Assembly (NCBI RefSeq): GCF_040760005.1 | Contig: NZ_CP099760.1 | Span: forward strand, 1,979,501-2,043,500 | Origin: Pseudomonas sp. stari2 | Lineage (GTDB): Bacteria > Pseudomonadota > Gammaproteobacteria > Pseudomonadales > Pseudomonadaceae | Length of the DNA: 64,000 nt | Direction: 5' to 3' | Shown: positions 2,528 to 12,672 of the stretch, piece by piece | Layout: the number at the start of each line of letters is the position of its first letter | Numbering within the stretch: the first letter of the stretch is position 1 | Notes under the pieces: generated by a model | The model's database searches: none | What the model was told of the DNA's origin: nothing | What the model saw: the letters and a program-made list of their open reading frames with translations, nothing else | Program-made: the position numbers and the translations under genes

Positions 2528-3285
2528 TGGGTGCGTTGCGCATCGTCTTGACCCTGGCCTTGATGTTGGCCACGCCACTGGCGTTCGCCGCTGATCCGTT
2601 GTCTATCCCGGCGATCACTCTGGGCACCAATGCCAACGGGGCGCAGGAGTATTCGGTCAGCCTGCAGATCCTGCTGATCATGACGGCGCTAAGCTTCATT
2701 CCGGCCGCCGTCATCCTGATGACCAGCTTCACCCGGATCATCATCGTCTTCTCGATCCTGCGTCAGGCCCTCGGCCTGCAACAGACGCCGTCGAACCAGA
2801 TCCTCACCGGCATGGCGCTGTTCCTGACCCTGTTCATCATGGCGCCGGTGTTCGACCGGGTGAACAACGATGCGCTGCAACCGTATCTGGCGGAGAAACT
2901 CACCGCCCAGCAAGCGGTGGAAAAGGCCCAGGTTCCGATCAAGGACTTCATGCTCGCGCAGACCCGCTCCAGCGATCTCGAGCTGTTCATGCGCCTGTCC
3001 AAGCGTACCGACATCGCGACGCCGGATCAGGCGCCACTGACCATTCTGGTGCCGGCGTTCGTCACGTCCGAGTTGAAAACCGCGTTCCAGATCGGCTTCA
3101 TGATCTTCATCCCGTTCCTGATCATCGATCTGGTCGTGGCCAGTGTGCTGATGGCGATGGGTATGATGATGCTCTCGCCGCTGATCATTTCCCTGCCGTT
3201 CAAGATCATGCTGTTCGTGCTGGTTGACGGATGGGCGCTGATCATCGGCACCCTGGCCAGCAGTTTCGGAGGTGTTTCGCCATGA
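2527..3285 (+). CDS. fliP: flagellar export gate protein FliP
   Basis: FliP forms the core of the flagellar type III export gate with FliQ and FliR. The 252-residue protein has a cleavable-type N-terminal signal (about residues 1-21, ending AFA). A first pair of membrane segments follows near residues 45-100, then a periplasmic loop and two C-terminal membrane segments, with the family signature around the second pair ([19 protein letters not shown]). The stop overlaps the fliQ start by four bases (ATGA). Confidence 0.97.
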
Positions 3286-4343: not shown

Positions 4344-5483
4344 ATGGCAGAGAGCGAGAGCGGTCAGGATAAAACAGAAGACCCCACGGAGAAGCGCAAG
4401 AAGGACTCCCGGGAAAAAGGCGAGGTTGCGCGCTCCAAGGAACTCAACACCCTGGCGATCATGCTCGCCGGTTCCGGCGCGCTGCTGGTGTTCGGCGGCA
4501 TGCTTGCGCAGGACTTGATGGAGCTGATGCGCATGAACTTCACGCTGTCGCGCGAAGTGATCATGGATCAGGGCTCCATGGGCAAGTTCCTGATGAGTTC
4601 CGGGCTGTCAGCGCTGCTGGCGATTCAACCGATCATGATCACCTTGCTGCTGGCTGCGTTTCTCGGGCCGATCGCCCTCGGCGGCTGGTTGTTCGCGGTG
4701 GGCTCTCTGGCACCCAAGTTCAGTCGGATGAACCCGTTGTCCGGTATCAAGCGCATGTTCTCCATGAAGTCGGTGGTCGAACTGCTCAAGGCGCTGGCCA
4801 AATTCCTGATCATTCTGGCGGTGGCGCTGGTGGTGTTGTCCGGCGATGTCGACGACCTGCTGCGCATCGCTCATGAGCCGCTGGACCGGGCGATCATTCA
4901 CAGTCTGCAACTGGTCGGTTGGAGTACTTTGTGGATGGCGTGCGGTTTGATCATTATTGCGGCCGTCGACGTCCCGGTGCAGCTCTGGGAGAGCATTAAA
5001 AAGCTCAAGATGACCAAGCAGGAAGTGCGCGACGAGCACAAGGACCAGGAAGGTCGGCCGGAGGTCAAGCAGCGCATTCGCCAGGTTCAGCGCGAGATGT
5101 CGCAGCGGCGGATGATGGCGGCGATCCCGGATGCCGACGTGGTCATCACCAACCCGACCCACTACGCCGTGGCACTCAAGTACGACTCGGAGAAGGGCGG
5201 GGCGCCGGTGCTGCTGGCCAAGGGCAGCGACTTCTTGGCGCTGAAGATTCGCGAAATCGCCGTGGCCAACAACGTCATGCTCCTCGAATCGCCGGCCCTG
5301 GCGCGTTCGATCTATTACTCCACCGAGCTTGAGGAAGAAATCCCCGGTGGCCTGTATCTGGCGGTCGCCCAGGTACTGGCTTACGTCTACCAGATTCGCC
5401 AGCACCAGGCCGGCAAGGGCAAGCGCCCGGATCCGCTCAGTGATGACTTGCCGATCCCGCCGGATCTGCGGCGCGATTCCTGA
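4344..5483 (+). CDS. flhB: flagellar export switch protein FlhB
   Basis: FlhB selects export substrates: it cleaves itself at Asn-Pro within NPTH and, with FliK, switches from rod/hook to filament proteins. The 379-residue protein has a basic N-terminus (EDPTEKRKKDSREKGEVARS), four membrane helices between about residues 35 and 215, a charged linker, and NPTH at residues 270-273 followed by the complete C-terminal domain. It is the last gene of the fliL run. No terminator follows it here. A matching terminator lies behind a second, broken copy of its 3' end at 8232-8595, so the original gene end appears to have been displaced by inserted DNA. Confidence 0.97.
   Translation: MAESESGQDKTEDPTEKRKKDSREKGEVARSKELNTLAIMLAGSGALLVFGGMLAQDLMELMRMNFTLSREVIMDQGSMGKFLMSSGLSALLAIQPIMITLLLAAFLGPIALGGWLFAVGSLAPKFSRMNPLSGIKRMFSMKSVVELLKALAKFLIILAVALVVLSGDVDDLLRIAHEPLDRAIIHSLQLVGWSTLWMACGLIIIAAVDVPVQLWESIKKLKMTKQEVRDEHKDQEGRPEVKQRIRQVQREMSQRRMMAAIPDADVVITNPTHYAVALKYDSEKGGAPVLLAKGSDFLALKIREIAVANNVMLLESPALARSIYYSTELEEEIPGGLYLAVAQVLAYVYQIRQHQAGKGKRPDPLSDDLPIPPDLRRDS
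5119..5483 (+). repeat. direct repeat copy 1: 3' end of intact flhB
   Basis: The last 365 bases of flhB are repeated in the same orientation at 8232-8595. Reading the two by eye gives about 19 substitutions and one missing base, so about 95% identity. This copy is in frame with the intact gene. The repeat flanks the A+T-rich M60 protease gene. Confidence 0.9.
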
Positions 5484-5565
5484 TTTGCTTCCATTCTCGT
5501 TGGGATGCGTGACGCTTCCTGATAGCCCCTCCTTTTTCAATTATCCGTAAGGTTTGAGGCGCTTC

Positions 5566-8040
5566 TTAAATTTGCAGTCGATTGTTTCCCAGCGCGCAAA
5601 TGCGGTGTCTTTGTTCGACGGGATATTGCTCGTTCGTCATTGGGTTTGTGATAGGCGAACGTGACGACTCCAAATGCAGAACAATTATTTCGCAGCCTTC
5701 GTAAAACTGGATTTTTGTTGATGATGGTGTATTCAATGTGTTTCCGTGCATTTTTGTACAAAAGACCACGTTCCCCTTTTCGTTGTAAGCCAAAATGGCG
5801 CTGTAGATTGAGTTGAAATAAGTATGAGGATGGGTAGGAAGTATCTGGATCTCAGCTGTTTCAAGTTCAAGATCAATATCAATTTTAGTGAAGGGACCGC
5901 TCAGGCCATATTGATCCCAGTTGATTTTTTTTTCGGTCAAGATTAATGGGTTGTGATTGAGGTGTGTGCTGTAAAGGTATTTGTATGTTTCCTCCAATTG
6001 ATTTTTTTCTGGCGTTGAATAGGAGTCGATAGCCTGAAATATTGAATCTTTCCAAGGATCATTTCTGTGCAGTAAAATTTCTGGCTGTAATTTTATTTTT
6101 TCGGATTGCCTTTCAATTTCGGTGGCAAGTATTTCTCCTGTAGGGGTGGAGAGTGCTCTGTTATAAAGACCTTGGCGGGTGATCTCAAGGGTTGTGAGTT
6201 TGTTTGATGTTTCCAGAACTTTGTCTGCGTGTGGTTGTAAAATATTTCTGGATGGCTCCTCGTGGAATATTTCCAGTGTGTAGGCATAGCCAAACGGGAT
6301 CTTATTAAGGGAAGGTTTGGAGTCGTCTCCCAGTAAAACCTTGTGGAAGACCATATTTTGATATGTGTCTCTTATCGTGATTGTTGCATATATTTTTCCG
6401 TGAAAGTATGAGTGTGGGGCGCTGCTGGAAACGCTGATCGTTATATTTTTTTGCTCAGTATCTACATTGATGGAGGCGAATTCTCCATTGAGGCCATTTA
6501 ATTTAATTATTTGGGAAGCAAGTCGCGATCCCTGTGATATCTGATATTCGAGTTCGATGGGGTTGTTGTTGGTGATGGCAATCAGGTGTGAGGTGCTGAT
6601 TTGCAAGCCGTCACTGGTGGTTGTTGGAGCGATTAGGGTGTATGGCCCAGCGGGGATGTCTGAGAATGTTATTTGGGGTGAGGTTATTTTTTCAATATAA
6701 GTGACGCTGCTGCCGTTTTGTATAAGTAAATCTCGATTTTCTATTCTTGAAAATAGAGTTTGGTCGAGTCTCAATTCAATTTTGCCTACGAGATTTAGAG
6801 GTCTTAGAGTATTGCAGTCGACGATTGAGAAGCGGTTTTTCAGCTTAAGTGTTGCTATAGCGTTCGTCAGATGTTCCGCGGGTATCAGTTTGTAAAGGGG
6901 GTAGCGAGGGCTCGGGTTCTGATAGTGGCTTGAGCTGTAGCGGAAGTCTTCCATGGGGATTTGCACGAGGCTGAGTAATGGCTGTATATCGATATTGGAA
7001 ATTCTGGTGCAAAGGTCTCGAATCAGTTCTGTGAAGGGATGGTCTGAAAAATTGAAGTCTGGAGCATTGCTGAGTACTCTGTATTCCTTGTTGAATTTAC
7101 TTAGGAGGTCAGCATTTGTATCAAATATTAATGTCAATAAAAACAGAATTTCATGTAGTTGCCAAGTGTTGACGGGGTGATTCGATTCGAAGAGCTGTTC
7201 GACCTCGTTGTAGAGGTGCTCTGGGTTTCCATTATAGAGCCATCCTGTCTTGAATATGTCCTCACCGAGATATTTTTCTTGATAGTAGTGCGCGTAGATA
7301 TTGTTCCAGACTTCTCCCAAGTGAATTTTACTGTTCTGCATGAAAAGTCCTTGGTATCCATGCCCGACTTCATGTAACGACCCCCAATTGGTTGCGCGGG
7401 TATCCAACCAGAAGGCGAAAACTGAGCCATTTGACTGGGCGGTGTGGTGATGTCCATAGTAAGCGGAGCCACCTCCTGTTTTGTTGGCTTTCATGAAATA
7501 TCTGTTAATTGAGTTTTTATTTGTCGGGGTGTCCGGAGTGAACGACAGTCCTGCCAATAGGTTGAAAAACTCAAAGAGTTGTTGGTAGTAAGTGCTAATG
7601 CTCTTTATGTTGTTTGAGTGATGAAGTTCTTTCAGCAGCGCTTTGTCTGTTGCCGGTATCAGTATGTCTGCATAAACGGTGTTGATAAGAGCAAAGGGTG
7701 CTTGTCCTTCATCCCATTGCCTGAAAAAATCCGCTGCGTCCGAATTATCCTTGTAGGTGGGTAGTGGCTGAGGAACAGAGCTGTACTCGATATCGACATC
7801 AATGTTTGTTTCGGTTTGGCTGTGAGGTGTACTGATAAAAGGCACTGAGTAGTGTTTAATTGTATGCAGAACTGTCTGGCCCGTAAAAGGTAGATACTCT
7901 TCAGTTTGCTCGTCGTCATTCAGTAGCTCAAGTTGGAGCCTTTCATCAGTCTTGCTGGAAAGATGCCTGATCTGAATGGTTGTTCCCGGAGCAAGAATGA
8001 CCCCCAGCGCCTGTTTGTCGTGGTAGATACCTTTGCTCAT
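5566..8040 (-). CDS. M60/enhancin-like metalloprotease with two mucin-binding-type modules
   Basis: The 824-residue protein carries a gluzincin zinc site, HEVGH at residues 223-227 with a third ligand candidate Glu243. This fits the M60 pattern HExxH-(8-24)-E, and the family cleaves glycosylated proteins such as mucins (viral enhancins act on the insect peritrophic matrix). Two related segments near the C-terminus, about residues 515-600 and 712-795, each contain a PH(S/T)YF core and end in E-(P/S)SR. They resemble the putative mucin/carbohydrate-binding module of enhancins. No Sec signal is seen. The gene is A+T-rich, runs against the flagellar genes and sits between two flhB 3' ends, so transfer is likely. 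The ATG at 8040 has only a weak ribosome site; a strong one belongs to a 25-codon reading frame just upstream (8037-8114). Substrate and export route are unknown. Confidence 0.75.
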   Translation of the reverse strand: MSKGIYHDKQALGVILAPGTTIQIRHLSSKTDERLQLELLNDDEQTEEYLPFTGQTVLHTIKHYSVPFISTPHSQTETNIDVDIEYSSVPQPLPTYKDNSDAADFFRQWDEGQAPFALINTVYADILIPATDKALLKELHHSNNIKSISTYYQQLFEFFNLLAGLSFTPDTPTNKNSINRYFMKANKTGGGSAYYGHHHTAQSNGSVFAFWLDTRATNWGSLHEVGHGYQGLFMQNSKIHLGEVWNNIYAHYYQEKYLGEDIFKTGWLYNGNPEHLYNEVEQLFESNHPVNTWQLHEILFLLTLIFDTNADLLSKFNKEYRVLSNAPDFNFSDHPFTELIRDLCTRISNIDIQPLLSLVQIPMEDFRYSSSHYQNPSPRYPLYKLIPAEHLTNAIATLKLKNRFSIVDCNTLRPLNLVGKIELRLDQTLFSRIENRDLLIQNGSSVTYIEKITSPQITFSDIPAGPYTLIAPTTTSDGLQISTSHLIAITNNNPIELEYQISQGSRLASQIIKLNGLNGEFASINVDTEQKNITISVSSSAPHSYFHGKIYATITIRDTYQNMVFHKVLLGDDSKPSLNKIPFGYAYTLEIFHEEPSRNILQPHADKVLETSNKLTTLEITRQGLYNRALSTPTGEILATEIERQSEKIKLQPEILLHRNDPWKDSIFQAIDSYSTPEKNQLEETYKYLYSTHLNHNPLILTEKKINWDQYGLSGPFTKIDIDLELETAEIQILPTHPHTYFNSIYSAILAYNEKGNVVFCTKMHGNTLNTPSSTKIQFYEGCEIIVLHLESSRSPITNPMTNEQYPVEQRHRICALGNNRLQI

Positions 8041-8114
8041 CCCAGCATTGAGCAGCCATGTGGGTAGGTGAGGGTATATGCCTTAAATGTTTGCTTTTGT
8101 CCGACAGTTGTCAT
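8037..8114 (-). CDS. 25-codon upstream frame overlapping the M60 gene (leader peptide or broken N-terminus)
   Basis: On the minus strand an ATG at 8114 is preceded at ideal distance by AAGGAGAG. It opens a 25-codon frame (MTTVGQKQTFKAYTLTYPHG, then CSMLG) that stops at a TGA overlapping the ATG of the 824-residue frame. Either it is a translationally coupled leader, or it is the true N-terminus of the protease, now in another frame because of one lost or gained base. The strong ribosome site here and the weak one at 8040 favour a shared origin. I did not find evidence to decide. Confidence 0.4.
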   Translation of the reverse strand: MTTVGQKQTFKAYTLTYPHGCSMLG

Positions 8115-8231
8115 GTTGCTCTCCTTGGGCGAGTTAGACGCTAAGAGGAGAGTAGGTTCATTGCGTATGTTTTTAACCTGTAAAGTTTGACAGTTTTTTA
8201 TATCATTTTGTGCTTATACCACTGCTATTGA

Positions 8232-8595
8232 CGGCGATCCCGGATGCCGACGTGGTCATCACCAACCCGACCCACTACGCCGTGGCACTCAAGTACGACG
8301 CCGAGAAGGGGGGGCGCCGATGCTGCTGGCCAAGGGCAGCGACTTCCTGGCGTTGAAGATCCGCGAAATCGCCGTGGCCAACAACGTCATGCTCCTCGAA
8401 TCGCCGGCCTTGGCGCGTTCGATCTATTACTCCACCGAGCTTGAGGAAGAAATCCCCGGTGGCCTGTGTCTGGCGGTCGCCCAGGTACTGGCTTACGTCT
8501 ACCAGATTCGCCAGCACCGCGCGGGCAAGGGCAAGTTCCCGGAACCGCTCAAGGACGATTTGCCGATTCCGCCGGATCTGCGGCGCGATTCCTGA
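8232..8595 (+). pseudogene. flhB: flhB 3' fragment (pseudogene, second copy)
   Basis: This segment repeats the flhB C-terminal coding region from just before NPTH to the stop. It has no membrane part and no start of its own. A base is missing in the run of G after AAG (near 8310), so the NPTH part and the rest of the domain are in different frames. The remaining open frame (from ATG 8320) would encode only the last 91 residues. It differs from intact flhB at about 19 positions, including the codons for the C-terminal tail, so it is not a recent exact duplication. A strong terminator follows directly, as expected for the original end of an flhB operon. Confidence 0.9.
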
Positions 8596-8601
8596 TGAAG
8601 C

Positions 8602-8641
8602 AAAAAAACCGCCTCCGGTTGAATCCGGTGGCGGTTTTTTT
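8602..8641 (+). terminator. rho-independent terminator after the flhB fragment
   Basis: A GC-rich stem (ACCGCC-CCGG paired with CCGG-GGCGGT, 8608-8635) with a three-base loop is followed by a run of T and preceded by a run of A, so it can work on both strands. It begins about ten bases after the flhB fragment and was probably the terminator of the fliL-flhB operon before the insertion. Confidence 0.9.
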
Positions 8642-8788: not shown

Positions 8789-9163
8789 TTACACAGAGGT
8801 CTGCGACGGCGTTAGTTCCAGATTATTCAGCACCCGATTCGCAGCCAGCTCCCCGAGCATGATCAGTTGCCCGATGCCCGTCAGTGTCCTGCGCTGCGAA
8901 GCGGGCATGAAGTGAGCGAAGTCATTGGCGATGGTTCTGGCGGAAGCGAGGGTTTCGCAGAGTTCGACCAGCAGCTCTTCGTTTTTGAAGTCCGCGGTGA
9001 CGGCAAACATCCGGCGGGTTCTGCGGGGCGGTGGCGTGGAGCCGGGCGGGCAGAGATAGTGATCGAGGGCGCGGTCGGCGGCTTCGTGAAGCTTTCTGGA
9101 GTCGAGGGATTCGTAGGGCGAGGCGGGGTCGGTTTCGGGTGGGTTGGGTGTTGGTTTGATCAT
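8789..9163 (-). CDS. DUF6124 family protein
   Basis: A 124-residue protein of unknown function. Its N-terminal pattern (TPNPPETDPASPYESLDSRK, then LHEAADRALDHYL) is typical of a small family found in many copies in Pseudomonas genomes and called DUF6124. It is hydrophilic at the start and helical afterwards, with no signal peptide or membrane segment. A ribosome site (ATAGGAG) precedes the ATG at 9163. A structured leader that resembles C4 antisense RNA lies upstream (9214-9289, same strand), so expression may be controlled in the leader. No neighbour suggests a function. Confidence 0.8.
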   Translation of the reverse strand: MIKPTPNPPETDPASPYESLDSRKLHEAADRALDHYLCPPGSTPPPRRTRRMFAVTADFKNEELLVELCETLASARTIANDFAHFMPASQRRTLTGIGQLIMLGELAANRVLNNLELTPSQTSV

Positions 9164-9213
9164 GGTGAAACTCCTATAAAGTGGAGCCGCCCGGAACTAT
9201 CGCTAAACAGTAA

Positions 9214-9289
9214 GGTGGCGGCTGTACGCAGGTTAGCGAACCGGTTATAGGCACCCGGCAGACCCGAGGGTCTCCCGCATACAGCCACC
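9214..9289 (-). ncRNA. structured leader RNA resembling C4 antisense RNA
   Basis: Read on the minus strand, GGTGGCTGTATGCGG pairs with CTGCGTACAGCC(GCC)ACC to close a long stem. Inside are two hairpins: AGACCC-TC-GGGTCT, and CCGG with CCGG around a short loop. This arrangement recalls the phage P1/P7-type C4 antisense RNA, which is frequent in bacterial genomes upstream of small genes. It ends about 50 bases before the DUF6124 start codon. The base pairing is visible; the family assignment is from memory and needs a covariance-model search against Rfam RF01695. Confidence 0.5.
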
Positions 9290-9685
9290 ATAGCGGAGTT
9301 GCAGACATAGAGTCTGCGACAAGGCATGGAGCGCTGGTGCACCTATTTATGATTCGAGTCGCTAAACCCGATCGCTGATTCGTCAGCGACCGACCCACAA
9401 TAGAACCCGACCCCAAGGCGCACAAGCCGGCGGATTCTGGCGTAGCTGTAGGCAATGGCGCAAGAATTCGTAGCCTTCAAGGCGTATCTGAAGGTGTCTT
9501 TTAAACACCCGAGTTTTAAAGACTCTGGGTGCCGTCGGTCTGAAAGGTCCCGCGACCTGTTAGTTCTGACAGTAGACGCGTGTTGTTCCCTGGCGCCTCA
9601 TAAACCCGGAACTCACGCCGCTGCCTCTTCGCACTCTGCGAACGCGGCGGGTGATAACTCATTCAGTGGAGATCCGGGGTAGATC
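9290..9685. other. intergenic region without a recognised gene
   Basis: This 396-base stretch separates the DUF6124 leader from the unknown gene at 9686. It should hold promoters for both, but no clear sigma-70 pair was found. A weak stem, CACCC...GGGTG near 9508-9533, is present. Short open frames here look like shadows without ribosome sites. Confidence 0.5.
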
Positions 9686-10354
9686 ATGACGAGGCGCATT
9701 TATCGAAAACTGCCGGGCATGGAGATGGAGTTCGATTCAGGGAAGCTGGAAAGGGACGCAGGAGAGCGGGCCATTTTCTATGAGGTGACGTTCAACCTGA
9801 AGCTGGACTTTCTCAACTTTCTGGTCACGGCCAATCAGTTCATTCCGAATTATCTGGATAATCCCATCAATGCGATCCGACCTGAACTGGCCGGGTTTGC
9901 GTATCACTACTCCTACAACTACTTCTTTGGCGCCGCCGGTAATATCAGCGATAACCCTTCGTTGTTCGCTCTATTCACCGACCCCGGTCATTACATGAAC
10001 CAGTGGGCGAGTGATGGCGGGCCCGTAGAGCGACGGTATGGAAAACCCTCATTCACGGTGGCCGGCAACCAATTGCGCATTACGACGCGGCAGTATTTTC
10101 GACTGGATGCGGGGGCTCCTCCAATCGAAATAACAGATCTGCCGTTCATTCGTTTCGAATGGGCCTTGAACCTGATGGAGGGTCATGTGCAGCCTGTTGG
10201 TGTCGCGCCTGTCACCGTTGTAGTGCTGATGTATACGGAGGAAGACGTTGTCGATGTCGATGGTCACAGTGTGTTCAGGGGCACACGCTATCTGGATAAT
10301 GCAGCCCTTTCCTTCGGTCCGATCACTTCAGCGCACATTTTGGTAGCCAGTTGA
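9686..10354 (+). CDS. hypothetical protein, 222 residues
   Basis: I do not recognise this protein. It starts at ATG 9686 and has no signal peptide or membrane segment. The sequence is rich in aromatic residues (for example FAYHYSYNYFFGAAG and RYGKPSFTVAGNQLR) with alternating hydrophobic residues that suggest a beta-sandwich fold. Its codon use is less G+C-rich than the flagellar genes on either side, and it lies in the variable stretch between flhB and flhA, so it may be acquired. Function is unknown; there is no motif for catalysis that I can point to. Confidence 0.6.
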   Translation: MTRRIYRKLPGMEMEFDSGKLERDAGERAIFYEVTFNLKLDFLNFLVTANQFIPNYLDNPINAIRPELAGFAYHYSYNYFFGAAGNISDNPSLFALFTDPGHYMNQWASDGGPVERRYGKPSFTVAGNQLRITTRQYFRLDAGAPPIEITDLPFIRFEWALNLMEGHVQPVGVAPVTVVVLMYTEEDVVDVDGHSVFRGTRYLDNAALSFGPITSAHILVAS

Positions 10355-10542: not shown

Positions 10543-12672
10543 GTGGATCGCTCTCAGTTAATCAACAGTGCTCGCTCGAACATTGCCGACCTCAGTCGGG
10601 GCAATCTGGGTGTGCCGCTGTTGCTGCTGGTCATGCTGGCGATGATGATGTTGCCGGTGCCGCCGTTCCTGCTCGACGTGTTCTTCACCTTCAACATTGC
10701 CCTGTCCATCGTCGTGCTGCTGGTCTGCGTGTACGCCTTGCGGCCGCTGGATTTTGCGGTGTTCCCGACGATCCTGCTGGTGGCGACGCTGTTGCGACTG
10801 GCGCTGAACGTGGCGTCGACGCGGGTGGTAATGCTCCACGGTCAGGACGGCCACGCCGCCGCCGGTAAGGTGATCCAGGCCTTCGGTGAGGTGGTGATCG
10901 GTGGTAACTACGTGGTCGGTATCGTGGTCTTCGCGATCTTGATGATCATCAACTTCGTCGTGGTGACCAAAGGTGCGGGGCGGATTTCCGAGGTGAGCGC
11001 GCGCTTCACCCTCGACGCGATGCCCGGCAAACAAATGGCCATCGACGCCGACCTCAACGCCGGTCTGATCGACCAGGCGCAGGCCAAGGCCCGTCGTCAG
11101 GAAGTGGCCCAGGAGGCAGAGTTCTACGGTTCGATGGACGGTGCCAGCAAGTTCGTCCGCGGTGACGCCATCGCCGGCCTGCTGATTCTGTTCATCAACC
11201 TGATCGGCGGTATGGCGGTCGGTATCTTCCAGCACAACATGTCCTTCGCTGACGCGGGCAAGGTTTACGCCTTGCTGACCATCGGTGACGGTTTAGTGGC
11301 GCAATTGCCATCACTGTTGTTATCTACAGCTGCAGCAATCATGGTGACCCGTGCTTCCGGTTCGGAAGACATGGGCAAACAGATCAATCGCCAGATGTTC
11401 GCCTCGCCAAAAGCGCTGGCGGTGGCGGCCGGTCTGATGGCGGTCATGGGGCTGGTGCCGGGCATGCCGCACTTCTCGTTCCTGAGCATGGCCGCCCTGG
11501 CTGCCGGTGGCGCTTACCTGTTCTGGAAGAAGCAGAGCGTGGCCAAGGTGCAGGCGCTGGAAGAGGTCAAGCGGCAGCAGGAACTGCTGCCGTCGCCGGC
11601 CCGCGCCATGGAAACCAAGGAGCTGGGCTGGGACGACGTGACCCCGATCGACATGATCGGCCTGGAAGTCGGCTACCGCCTGATTCCGCTGGTGGACCGC
11701 AACCAGGGCGGGCAATTGCTGGCGCGGATCAAGGGCGTGCGCAAGAAGCTCTCGCAGGATCTGGGCTTCCTGATGCCGACCGTGCACATCCGCGACAACC
11801 TCGACCTGGCGCCGAGCGCCTATCGCCTGACCCTGATGGGCGTGATCCTGGCCGAGGCCGAGATCTACCCGGATCGCGAACTGGCGATCAACCCGGGGCA
11901 GGTCTACGGCACGCTCAACGGCATTACCGCCAAAGATCCGGCTTTCGGCCTGGAGGCGGTGTGGATCGAAGTCAGCCAGCGCTCCCAGGCGCAATCGCTC
12001 GGGTACACCGTGGTGGACGCCAGTACCGTGGTCGCCACGCACTTGAACCAGATTCTGTACAAGCACTCCAGTGAGTTGATCGGTCACGAGGAAGTGCAGC
12101 AACTCATGCAATTGCTGGCCAAGAGCTCGCCGAAACTGGCTGAAGAGCTGGTGCCGGGTGTGGTCACGTTGTCGCAGCTGCTGAAAGTGTTGCAGGCGCT
12201 GCTGGCCGAACACGTGCCGGTGCGCGACATCCGCAGCATTGCCGAAGCCATCGCCAACAACGCCGCGAAGAGTCAAGATACCGCCGCGCTGGTGGCTGCC
12301 GTGCGCGTCGGCGTTTCGCGCGCCATCGTCCAAAGCATTGTAGGGACTGAGTCCGAGCTGCCAGTTATCACGCTGGAGCCAAGGTTGGAACAAATATTGC
12401 TCAATAGTCTGCAGAAGGCAGGACAAGGCTCGGAAGAGGGCGTTCTGCTGGAGCCAAGCATGGCCGAGAAGCTGCAGCGTTCGCTCATCGAAGCGGCGCA
12501 GCGTCAGGAAATGCAAGGTCAGCCGGTGATCCTGTTGGTAGCAGGCCCGGTTCGCGCGATGCTCTCGCGCTTTGGCCGCCTGGCAGTCCCAGGACTGCAC
12601 GTGCTGGCCTACCAGGAAATTCCGGACAACAAGCAAGTGACCATCGTTGCGACAGTAGGGCCCAACGGCTGA
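10543..12672 (+). CDS. flhA: flagellar export apparatus protein FlhA
   Basis: FlhA is the large export-gate protein that couples proton flow to substrate transfer and binds chaperone-substrate complexes. The 709-residue protein has about eight N-terminal membrane helices and the FHIPEP-type loop (GRISEVSARFTLDAMPGKQM, about residues 146-165). A cytoplasmic domain of about 350 residues follows, ending in VATVGPNG. It starts at GTG 10543 behind GGGGAAA. It is the first gene of flhA-flhF-fleN-fliA; flhF starts 11 bases after the stop. Confidence 0.97.
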   Translation: MDRSQLINSARSNIADLSRGNLGVPLLLLVMLAMMMLPVPPFLLDVFFTFNIALSIVVLLVCVYALRPLDFAVFPTILLVATLLRLALNVASTRVVMLHGQDGHAAAGKVIQAFGEVVIGGNYVVGIVVFAILMIINFVVVTKGAGRISEVSARFTLDAMPGKQMAIDADLNAGLIDQAQAKARRQEVAQEAEFYGSMDGASKFVRGDAIAGLLILFINLIGGMAVGIFQHNMSFADAGKVYALLTIGDGLVAQLPSLLLSTAAAIMVTRASGSEDMGKQINRQMFASPKALAVAAGLMAVMGLVPGMPHFSFLSMAALAAGGAYLFWKKQSVAKVQALEEVKRQQELLPSPARAMETKELGWDDVTPIDMIGLEVGYRLIPLVDRNQGGQLLARIKGVRKKLSQDLGFLMPTVHIRDNLDLAPSAYRLTLMGVILAEAEIYPDRELAINPGQVYGTLNGITAKDPAFGLEAVWIEVSQRSQAQSLGYTVVDASTVVATHLNQILYKHSSELIGHEEVQQLMQLLAKSSPKLAEELVPGVVTLSQLLKVLQALLAEHVPVRDIRSIAEAIANNAAKSQDTAALVAAVRVGVSRAIVQSIVGTESELPVITLEPRLEQILLNSLQKAGQGSEEGVLLEPSMAEKLQRSLIEAAQRQEMQGQPVILLVAGPVRAMLSRFGRLAVPGLHVLAYQEIPDNKQVTIVATVGPNG

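What the first reader, a model, noticed from the sequence alone, without database searches (positions are those of the whole stretch)
5119..8641. M60/enhancin-like protease gene inserted at flhB, bounded by a diverged second copy of the flhB 3' end
The last 365 bases of flhB recur in direct orientation at 8232-8595, about 95% identical and frameshifted, and are followed by what looks like the original operon terminator. Between the copies is an A+T-rich gene for an 824-residue protein with HEVGH plus a downstream Glu and two enhancin-type C-terminal modules. The level of divergence argues against a recent tandem duplication. It suggests that DNA from a related strain, carrying its own flhB end, recombined in. 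flhB-flhA may thus be a landing spot for host-interaction genes. The location beside the flagellar export gate also raises the question of whether the leaderless protease leaves the cell by that route, which is speculative.
Basis: partly seen in the sequence, partly recalled or inferred. Interest (0 to 1): 0.75.

Follow-up and report, generated by a model that had tools for sequence, protein, structure and literature searches.

The report
Mucin-cutting protease docked at flhB
A gene for a mucin-digesting type of protease sits beside a flagellar gene whose old tail end was pushed aside when new DNA arrived, and the same spot in related bacteria often holds other swapped-in genes.

Summary
The last ~365 nt of flhB recur at 8232-8595 (94% identical, frame broken), followed by a strong terminator hairpin. 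Between the copies lies an A+T-rich convergent ORF (5566-8040, minus), an enhancin-type M60 protease by HMM, motif and predicted fold.

At nine of nine differing sites in 5407-5444 the second copy carries the near relatives' allele and the intact flhB does not: the displaced copy is the resident end, and intact flhB wears a foreign 3' end. But a middle tract (5261-5400) is nearly identical in both copies, and a topology test does not reject sister copies.

flhB-flhA is a recurrent docking site. Gaps run from 132 bp to 7.4 kb; cargo includes Ig-like and (by eye) Rhs-like proteins. Displaced flhB tails reaching to within 4 nt of the gene's end occur in 8 of 96 intervals at E<=1e-4. P. atagonensis has a different M60 (43%) at the same spot, also before a displaced tail.

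Flagellar export is not supported: M60 relatives away from flhB are equally leaderless. Both flhB-linked M60 genes look damaged. It is a new variant of known displacement by homology-anchored recombination.

The parts
4344..5483 (+). flhB, intact; 5' part resident-like (closest G203, 92%)
   Evidence: Pfam PF01312 E=9.9e-130; quick tree (SH-aLRT 96 with G203)
5401..5483 (+). foreign 3' end of the intact flhB
   Evidence: at least 8 differences of 83 to each other genome compared, 11 to the second copy; 9 of 9 differing sites in 5407-5444 against the near relatives
5484..5565 (.). left foreign flank of the insert, 48.8% GC
   Evidence: no DNA match in 56 relatives' flhB-flhA regions; GC
5566..8040 (-). 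M60/enhancin-type metalloprotease ORF, 824 aa, convergent with flhB
   Evidence: single copy in own genome
8037..8114 (-). short leader frame with the start of the conserved N-terminal extension (KAYTLTYP); its TGA overlaps the ATG of the 824-aa ORF (ATGA)
   Evidence: start codon and ribosome-binding-like site read by eye
8041..8230 (.). right foreign flank / junction, 42% GC
   Evidence: no good match elsewhere in own genome (best E 0.05), none in 56 relative regions, none in the genus search (which scored at most two candidates a genome)
8229..8595 (+). displaced resident flhB 3' end (second copy), frame broken
8602..8641 (+). original flhB terminator hairpin
   Evidence: DNA here matches flhB-downstream DNA of relatives
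8789..9163 (-). DUF6124 gene, resident downstream module
   Evidence: PF19619 E=1e-16; 94.7% DNA identity to G203
9211..9403 (-). C4 antisense RNA (9211-9295) and its a1b1 target motif (9351-9403), upstream of DUF6124 on the same strand
   Evidence: Rfam RF01695 77.4 bits, RF03163 51.9 bits
9686..10354 (+). uncharacterised 222-aa ORF, family in 26 of 57 flhB-flhA intervals
10543..12672 (+). flhA, right border of the docking interval
   Evidence: relatives

Best explanation
Incoming DNA from another Pseudomonas lineage, carrying an flhB 3' end plus an M60 gene, recombined by homology within flhB. Its far end joined, without detectable homology, to a point inside the resident flhB. The cell kept a whole flhB with the donor's 3' end and gained the M60 cargo; the resident flhB tail, with its terminator, DUF6124 gene and C4 RNA, was pushed 3.1 kb downstream, where it decays. 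This is homology-anchored one-sided (illegitimate) recombination, and the flhB end is a recurrent anchor in this group. The cargo most likely encodes a zinc-dependent O-glycoprotease acting on mucin-like glycoproteins (for example of arthropod gut), made without a Sec signal, as in its Serratia relatives. Shown here: two flhB ends and their allele pattern, family and predicted fold, recurrence of displaced tails, a second M60 at the same site. Inferred: donor, recombination pathway, order of events, activity, substrate and release route.
For: Alleles: of 19 substitutions between the copies, the second copy has the near-relative allele (at least 6 of 7 genomes) at 12, the intact gene at 3, and 4 are split; 9 of 9 in 5407-5444. 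The tree places the second copy with the near relatives (83/91) and the intact tail outside them. DNA after the second copy is flhB-downstream DNA of relatives; DNA after the intact gene is foreign. Recurrence: extra flhB ends at E<=1e-4 in 8 of 57 intervals, 7 of them reaching the stop codon or 1 nt short of it; controls: middle of flhB 0 of 57, flhB start 1 of 57, flhA start 1 of 47, next flhA stretch 0 of 45; one more in 39 further intervals. DNA after 10 of 10 remnants (7 strict, 3 weaker) is colinear with other genomes' flhB-downstream DNA, against 270 of 2000 random windows. Left ends of the remnants vary from 368 to 15 nt, which suits a non-homologous junction. G162 has a different M60 (43%; not sister) in the same place and orientation with its own displaced tail. 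Protease. Precedent: PMC5361080 (passages).
Against: The AU test does not reject that the two window tails are sisters (p 0.317), and the intact tail, though outside the near-relative group, is its weakly supported neighbour (72/63) (my odds were lowered from 0.62 on adding this). Tract 5261-5400 is near identical in both copies (2 of 140) and at least 10 different from every other genome compared, so conversion or a shared origin must be added there. In 5119-5260 the second copy is closer to G353, G084, G016, G253 and G375 (2-4 differences) than to G203 (10). G162's tails are sisters, and in G203 the DNA after the remnant is 98.8% identical to that after its own flhB, as duplication would give. 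The L199 remnant is not followed by known flhB-downstream DNA (0 matches). No donor with flhB-M60 and no second tail was found. The window's M60 N-terminal extension is split between frames and G162's gene has an in-frame stop, so neither may be functional.
Confidence: 0.6

Rival explanations
1. Local tandem duplication of the flhB end (with downstream DNA) came first; the M60 segment was inserted between the copies later, and the copies then diverged, helped by conversion with other strains' flhB.
For: AU p 0.317; 2 of 140 differences in 5261-5400; sister tails in G162; 98.8% identical downstream DNA in G203; L199 array with a 98.9% identical tail between two similar genes.
Against: 9 of 9 sites in 5407-5444 give the resident allele to the second copy only; in the window the DNA after the second copy has no match in the DNA after the intact flhB.
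Confidence: 0.22
2. Campbell-type integration: a circularised or tandemly joined donor piece flhB'-M60-(flhA') entered by one crossover in flhB, leaving direct repeats.
For: In G162 a 49-nt piece of flhA (nt 233-281, E 5e-13) lies 35 nt left of the displaced flhB tail, the flhA-to-flhB order such a joint would give; L197 has a 254-nt copy of the flhA start inside its interval.
Against: No flhA fragment at the window's own right junction; the pattern in 5119-5400 is not the clean reciprocal exchange expected.
Confidence: 0.12
3. A site-specific element used the flhB 3' end as attachment site and restored the gene with its own end (as e14 does at icd; recalled, from no call).
For: Repair of the target gene's 3' end and displacement of the old end look alike.
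Against: The ORF list shows no second sizeable gene in 5484-8228 that could be an integrase; left ends of displaced tails vary from 368 to 15 nt instead of marking one core. Cargo of other intervals was only sampled.
Confidence: 0.03
4. Functional rival: the protease lies here because it is exported by the flagellar type III gate.
For: Adjacency; no hydrophobic leader.
Against: M60 relatives without a leader lie away from flhB in four other genomes of the genus; other cargo of the interval is unrelated; the gene runs against flhB.
Confidence: 0.03

Closest known systems
SmE, Serratia marcescens enhancin (M60 mucinase; PMC10550946, passages read)
   Same: M60 domain; a Serratia marcescens M60 protein (P0037) aligns over the whole query at 33% and also lacks a hydrophobic N-terminus; SmE is reported as secreted and mucin-cutting.
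   Different: 33% identity only; the window's N-terminal extension is split between frames. That P0037 is SmE itself was not checked.
EfmM60 (PDB 35ym)
   Same: Best sequence match among solved structures, E=4.4e-51 over residues 4-470.
   Different: A 518-residue chain that covers only the first 470 residues of the query; it was not among the rows of the fold searches.
T6SS effector-immunity displacement arrays in Vibrio cholerae and Rhs C-terminal displacement (PMC5361080, passages read)
   Same: New DNA anchored in a conserved stretch pushes an old 3' end and downstream genes back; remnants accumulate; homology-facilitated illegitimate recombination is the proposed route.
   Different: The anchor here is flhB, a flagellar gene that must stay whole and is not itself being diversified; most cargo seen is not known to be effector-immunity pairs.
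Homology-facilitated illegitimate recombination (PMC3240628, abstract and outline seen; the P. stutzeri work seen only as a reference in PMC5361080)
   Same: One homologous end, one non-homologous end.
   Different: Those are experiments; here it is inferred from sequence.
IMPa/ImpA of P. aeruginosa
   Different: NCBIfam ImpA model scores 16.8 against a cut-off of 250.

Membership tests
Peptidase M60 / enhancin (PF13402) | match to the M60 profile above gathering score | tested here: met
   47.9 bits against 25.8
Peptidase M60 / enhancin (PF13402) | HEXXHX(8,28)E motif (as given in PMC3267712) | tested here: met
   HEVGH 223-227, 15 residues, E243; H223, E224, H227 and E243 invariant in the 17 aligned sequences
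Peptidase M60 / enhancin (PF13402) | M60 catalytic fold | tested here: met
Peptidase M60 / enhancin (PF13402) | mucin/carbohydrate-binding module PF03272 (named with M60 as defining enhancins in PMC11499241) | tested here: met
   130.1 bits against 27, two stretches
Peptidase M60 / enhancin (PF13402) | zinc-dependent cleavage of O-glycoprotein | not testable with these tools
   needs purified protein
Peptidase M60 / enhancin (PF13402) | not a family criterion, but bears on function: one open frame over the N-terminal extension seen in 15 of 16 aligned relatives | tested here: not met
   extension split between two frames upstream of 8040
ImpA family metalloprotease (NF038322) | NCBIfam cut-off | tested here: not met
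   16.8 bits against 250
Displacement by homology-facilitated illegitimate recombination | conserved anchor gene kept whole with an imported 3' end | tested here: met
   but the AU test leaves the relation of the two copies open
Displacement by homology-facilitated illegitimate recombination | displaced old end followed by the ancestral downstream DNA | tested here: met
   window included: 10 of 10 remnants against 270 of 2000 random windows; L199, tested apart, is an exception
Displacement by homology-facilitated illegitimate recombination | non-homologous junction at the other end | tested here: inconclusive
   right flank has no match elsewhere in the genome or relatives, but there is no donor sequence to compare
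Displacement by homology-facilitated illegitimate recombination | identified donor | tested here: not met
   no insert DNA in 398 genus genomes beyond short coding pieces in G162 and G275
Integrase-type element at a gene end | integrase and fixed core | tested here: not met
   no candidate ORF in the insert; left ends vary

The most novel reading that the evidence does not exclude
The 3' end of flhB is a general docking site for gene exchange in the P. fluorescens group: flhB acts as a self-repairing homology anchor, cargo (M60 proteases, Ig-repeat proteins, Rhs-like tips) is stacked between it and successive displaced flhB ends with their DUF6124/C4-RNA module, and one M60 subclade (window, P. 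atagonensis, P0002-P0012) is a cargo lineage that spreads through this dock by recombination, without a mobile element of its own.
Probability: 0.4. Interest if true: 0.65.

Novelty: new variant of a known kind. Interest (0 to 1): 0.5.

Why it matters
If true, accessory genes can be swapped into a conserved operon boundary with no integrase: the anchor gene is rebuilt each time and leaves a scar (the displaced tail) from which order and direction of past exchanges can be read. flhB-flhA could then serve to measure homology-anchored gene uptake in wild Pseudomonas. It also places enhancin-type proteases, whose relatives degrade arthropod gut linings (PMC11499241, passages), in a few pseudomonads, while warning that the two flhB-linked copies look damaged.

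Tried and rejected
Mobile-element carriage: in plasmid records only 27-30% relatives from Enterococcus and Melissococcus (11 records); one record of the phage collection, labelled Salmonella enterica (28%); no tRNA in the window. Donor search: the single-protein scan of genome contigs found none; the alignment scan gave 38 loci, of which only the P. atagonensis one shows flhB or flhA within the held flanks, up to 10 kb and shorter for some. Insert DNA in the genus gave only short coding matches in G162 and G275, with at most two candidates scored a genome. A second genus draw around G203 gave five M60 matches, all in genomes already found. PADLOC and PHROGs gave no match for M60, DUF6124, the 222-aa ORF and one large cargo protein. 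The simple terminator scan listed only a minus-strand site at 8607-8620 and promoter-like sites were at chance, 5 against 4.0; the terminator rests on folding. A two-piece reciprocal crossover was tested on site patterns and is not clean. Literature: four searches (listings only, one hit opened for passages) showed no title or abstract on flhB-flhA as a hotspot; DUF6124 is in 0 papers held. Only open-licence papers are held, so this is weak.

Rows dropped: 4 of 60 fetched loci (L107-L110) hold M60 but no flhB and were left out, giving 57 intervals with the window. 10 of 57 and 2 of 39 intervals have no flhA within the held stretch. L098's E<=1e-4 hit (query 284-323) does not reach the stop codon; its 331-370 hit is weaker (3e-4). 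L083 (17 nt, 6e-4) and L105 (15 nt, 1e-3) are weak remnants, used only in the 10-remnant control. The 96 intervals are the closest flhB matches plus a hand-picked spread from the list, not a random draw. The protein clusters use all ORFs of 70 aa or more and include spurious frames. Of 22 differing rows, 3 are gaps and were left out of the 19 substitutions. The number of flhA-start tests was not printed. Labels Rhs-like and IS-like for cargo ORFs are by eye from recalled motifs; Pfam found nothing for the one Rhs-like ORF tested (L103).


Full report
What is there. flhB (4344-5483) ends normally. About 365 nt of its end recur at 8229/8232-8595 in direct orientation, 94.3% identical, with a 1-nt register shift that breaks the frame. 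The second copy is followed by a hairpin with a T run (8602-8641, -25.6 kcal/mol, z -6.3), then a DUF6124 gene, a C4 antisense RNA with its target motif, a 222-aa ORF of unknown family, and flhA. Between the copies is a 43% GC, convergent ORF of 824 aa in a 60% GC window, present once in the genome.

A damaged gene? 15 of the 16 aligned relatives have about 25-30 more N-terminal residues (YTL..P.WL..G) before MSKGI; the window's protein and P0003 do not. In the window this stretch lies upstream but in two frames: a short frame reads ...KAYTLTYP... and ends in a TGA that overlaps the ATG of the 824-aa ORF (ATGA), while PTWLLNAG is in the ORF's own frame (a ribosome-binding-like site before the short frame was read by eye). 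Coupled translation might still make the 824-aa product; this is inference. The only other flhB-linked M60 found, in P. atagonensis PS14 (G162; name inferred from the matching contig length and range; taxonomy), has an in-frame TGA.

Which flhB end is foreign? I compared both tails with flhB of 56 other genomes. Of 19 substitutions between the copies, the second copy has the allele of at least 6 of 7 near relatives at 12, the intact gene at 3, and 4 are split; in 5407-5444 it is 9 of 9 for the second copy, including two adjacent sites where the relatives' base is found in only 7 of 56 genomes. In 5401-5483 the intact end differs at 8 or more of 83 sites from every genome compared, the second copy at 2-3 from the near relatives. 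The tree agrees (second copy with the near relatives, 83/91), but the intact tail is the weakly supported neighbour of that group (72/63) and an AU test does not reject sister copies (p 0.317). Tract 5261-5400 is nearly the same in both copies (2 of 140) and unlike all others (10 or more), which needs conversion or a shared origin there; in 5119-5260 the second copy is nearest to G353, G084, G016, G253 and G375 (2-4 differences), not to G203 (10). The 5' part of flhB groups with G203 (SH-aLRT 96), as fliR does by identity (94% over 535 nt).

Is flhB-flhA a dock? In 57 intervals (window plus 56 relatives chosen by flhB similarity) the gap runs from 195 to 6505 bp in the 47 that are complete; in 39 more, 132 to 7390 bp in 37. 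tblastn found DUF6124 in 35 of 57 (counted); the 222-aa family is in 26 of 57 and a 449-1303-aa family in 17 of 57. Of five members of the latter tested, three show Ig-like domains at E<=0.01, one above the curated cut-off. Rhs-like C-terminal genes (by eye; no Pfam match for the one tested) and a Y1 transposase also occur. Extra copies of the flhB end (E<=1e-4) occur in 8 of 57 intervals, 7 of them reaching the stop codon or 1 nt short of it, with lengths of 368, 341, 114, 75, 55, 38 and 27 nt; control stretches give 0 of 57 (mid-flhB), 1 of 57 (flhB start, next to the tail remnant of L118), 1 of 47 (flhA start) and 0 of 45 (next flhA stretch). One more copy occurs in the 39 added intervals (L199: flhB, Rhs-like gene, 88-nt flhB tail at 98.9% that stops 4 nt before the flhB end, Rhs-like gene), with mid-flhB 0 of 39 and one flhA-start copy, L197. 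DNA after 10 of 10 remnants (7 strict plus 3 weak) is colinear with flhB-downstream DNA of other genomes, against 270 of 2000 random windows; with the stricter demand of nine or more genomes it is 3 of 10 against 22 of 2000. In 8 of 10 it does not match the DNA after the genome's own flhB. This is what displacement predicts. G203 and G253 do match their own, and L199's remnant is followed by no known flhB-downstream DNA, so duplication probably also happens.

The second M60 at the same place. In G162 the order is flhB, M60 (convergent, 43% identical), a 49-nt piece of flhA, a 341-nt flhB tail, DUF6124, C4 RNA, flhA. Its M60 piece groups with P0012 and P0009 (SH-aLRT 100 and 99), the window's with P0002, P0006 and P0007 (81) (quick tree), so the two genes are not sisters: they came in separately or one replaced the other. 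Of 38 M60 loci in named genomes, only this one shows flhB or flhA in the held flanks.

Mechanism. The simplest account is one homologous end within flhB and one end joined without homology, as proposed for T6SS effector displacement in Vibrio (PMC5361080, passages) and described in three naturally competent species (PMC3240628, abstract). The flhA piece in G162 and a 254-nt copy of the flhA start in L197 leave room for joints from circularised or tandem donor DNA. A site-specific element is disfavoured because the left ends vary and the insert has no candidate integrase ORF.

Verdict. The site is a general cargo dock rather than a protease locus, the secretion idea has no support, and the protease gene may be failing. 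New, as far as the searches named above go: the use of a flagellar housekeeping gene as a repeatedly rebuilt anchor. Known in kind: displacement by homology-anchored recombination, and M60 mucinases.

Noticed in passing
window 8789-9403: A DUF6124 gene preceded on the same strand by a C4 antisense RNA and its a1b1 target motif; C4 matches occur in 15 of 16 related loci searched, up to three per locus. It looks like a P1-type antisense control (recalled) on a chromosomal gene of unknown function.
   Followed up: partly
window 9686-10354: 222-aa ORF with no Pfam, NCBIfam, PADLOC or PHROGs match; its family is in 26 of 57 flhB-flhA intervals, in flhB orientation in all 26.
   Followed up: partly
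L199 (G363), flhB-flhA interval: Two Rhs-like (by eye) genes of 362 and 364 aa with an 88-nt flhB tail, 98.9% identical to the intact one, between them.
   Followed up: no
L067 (P. atagonensis), interval positions 2751-2799 and 2834-3174: A 49-nt flhA fragment 35 nt before the displaced flhB tail; the tail keeps an open 104-aa frame but its NPTH motif is altered.
   Followed up: partly
L197 (G297), flhB-flhA interval: 254 nt of the flhA start duplicated upstream of flhA at 99.6% identity.
   Followed up: no
L068, L072, L082, L092, L097 and others: Family of 449-1303-aa proteins, some with weak Ig-like domain matches, in the same interval in 17 of 57 genomes; 16 of 18 ORFs run against flhB like the M60 gene.
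   Followed up: partly
L118 (G233), interval 864-924: 24 nt of internal flhB joined to the last 38 nt of flhB: a shrunken second flhB copy, suggesting that remnants also erode by internal deletion.
   Followed up: no
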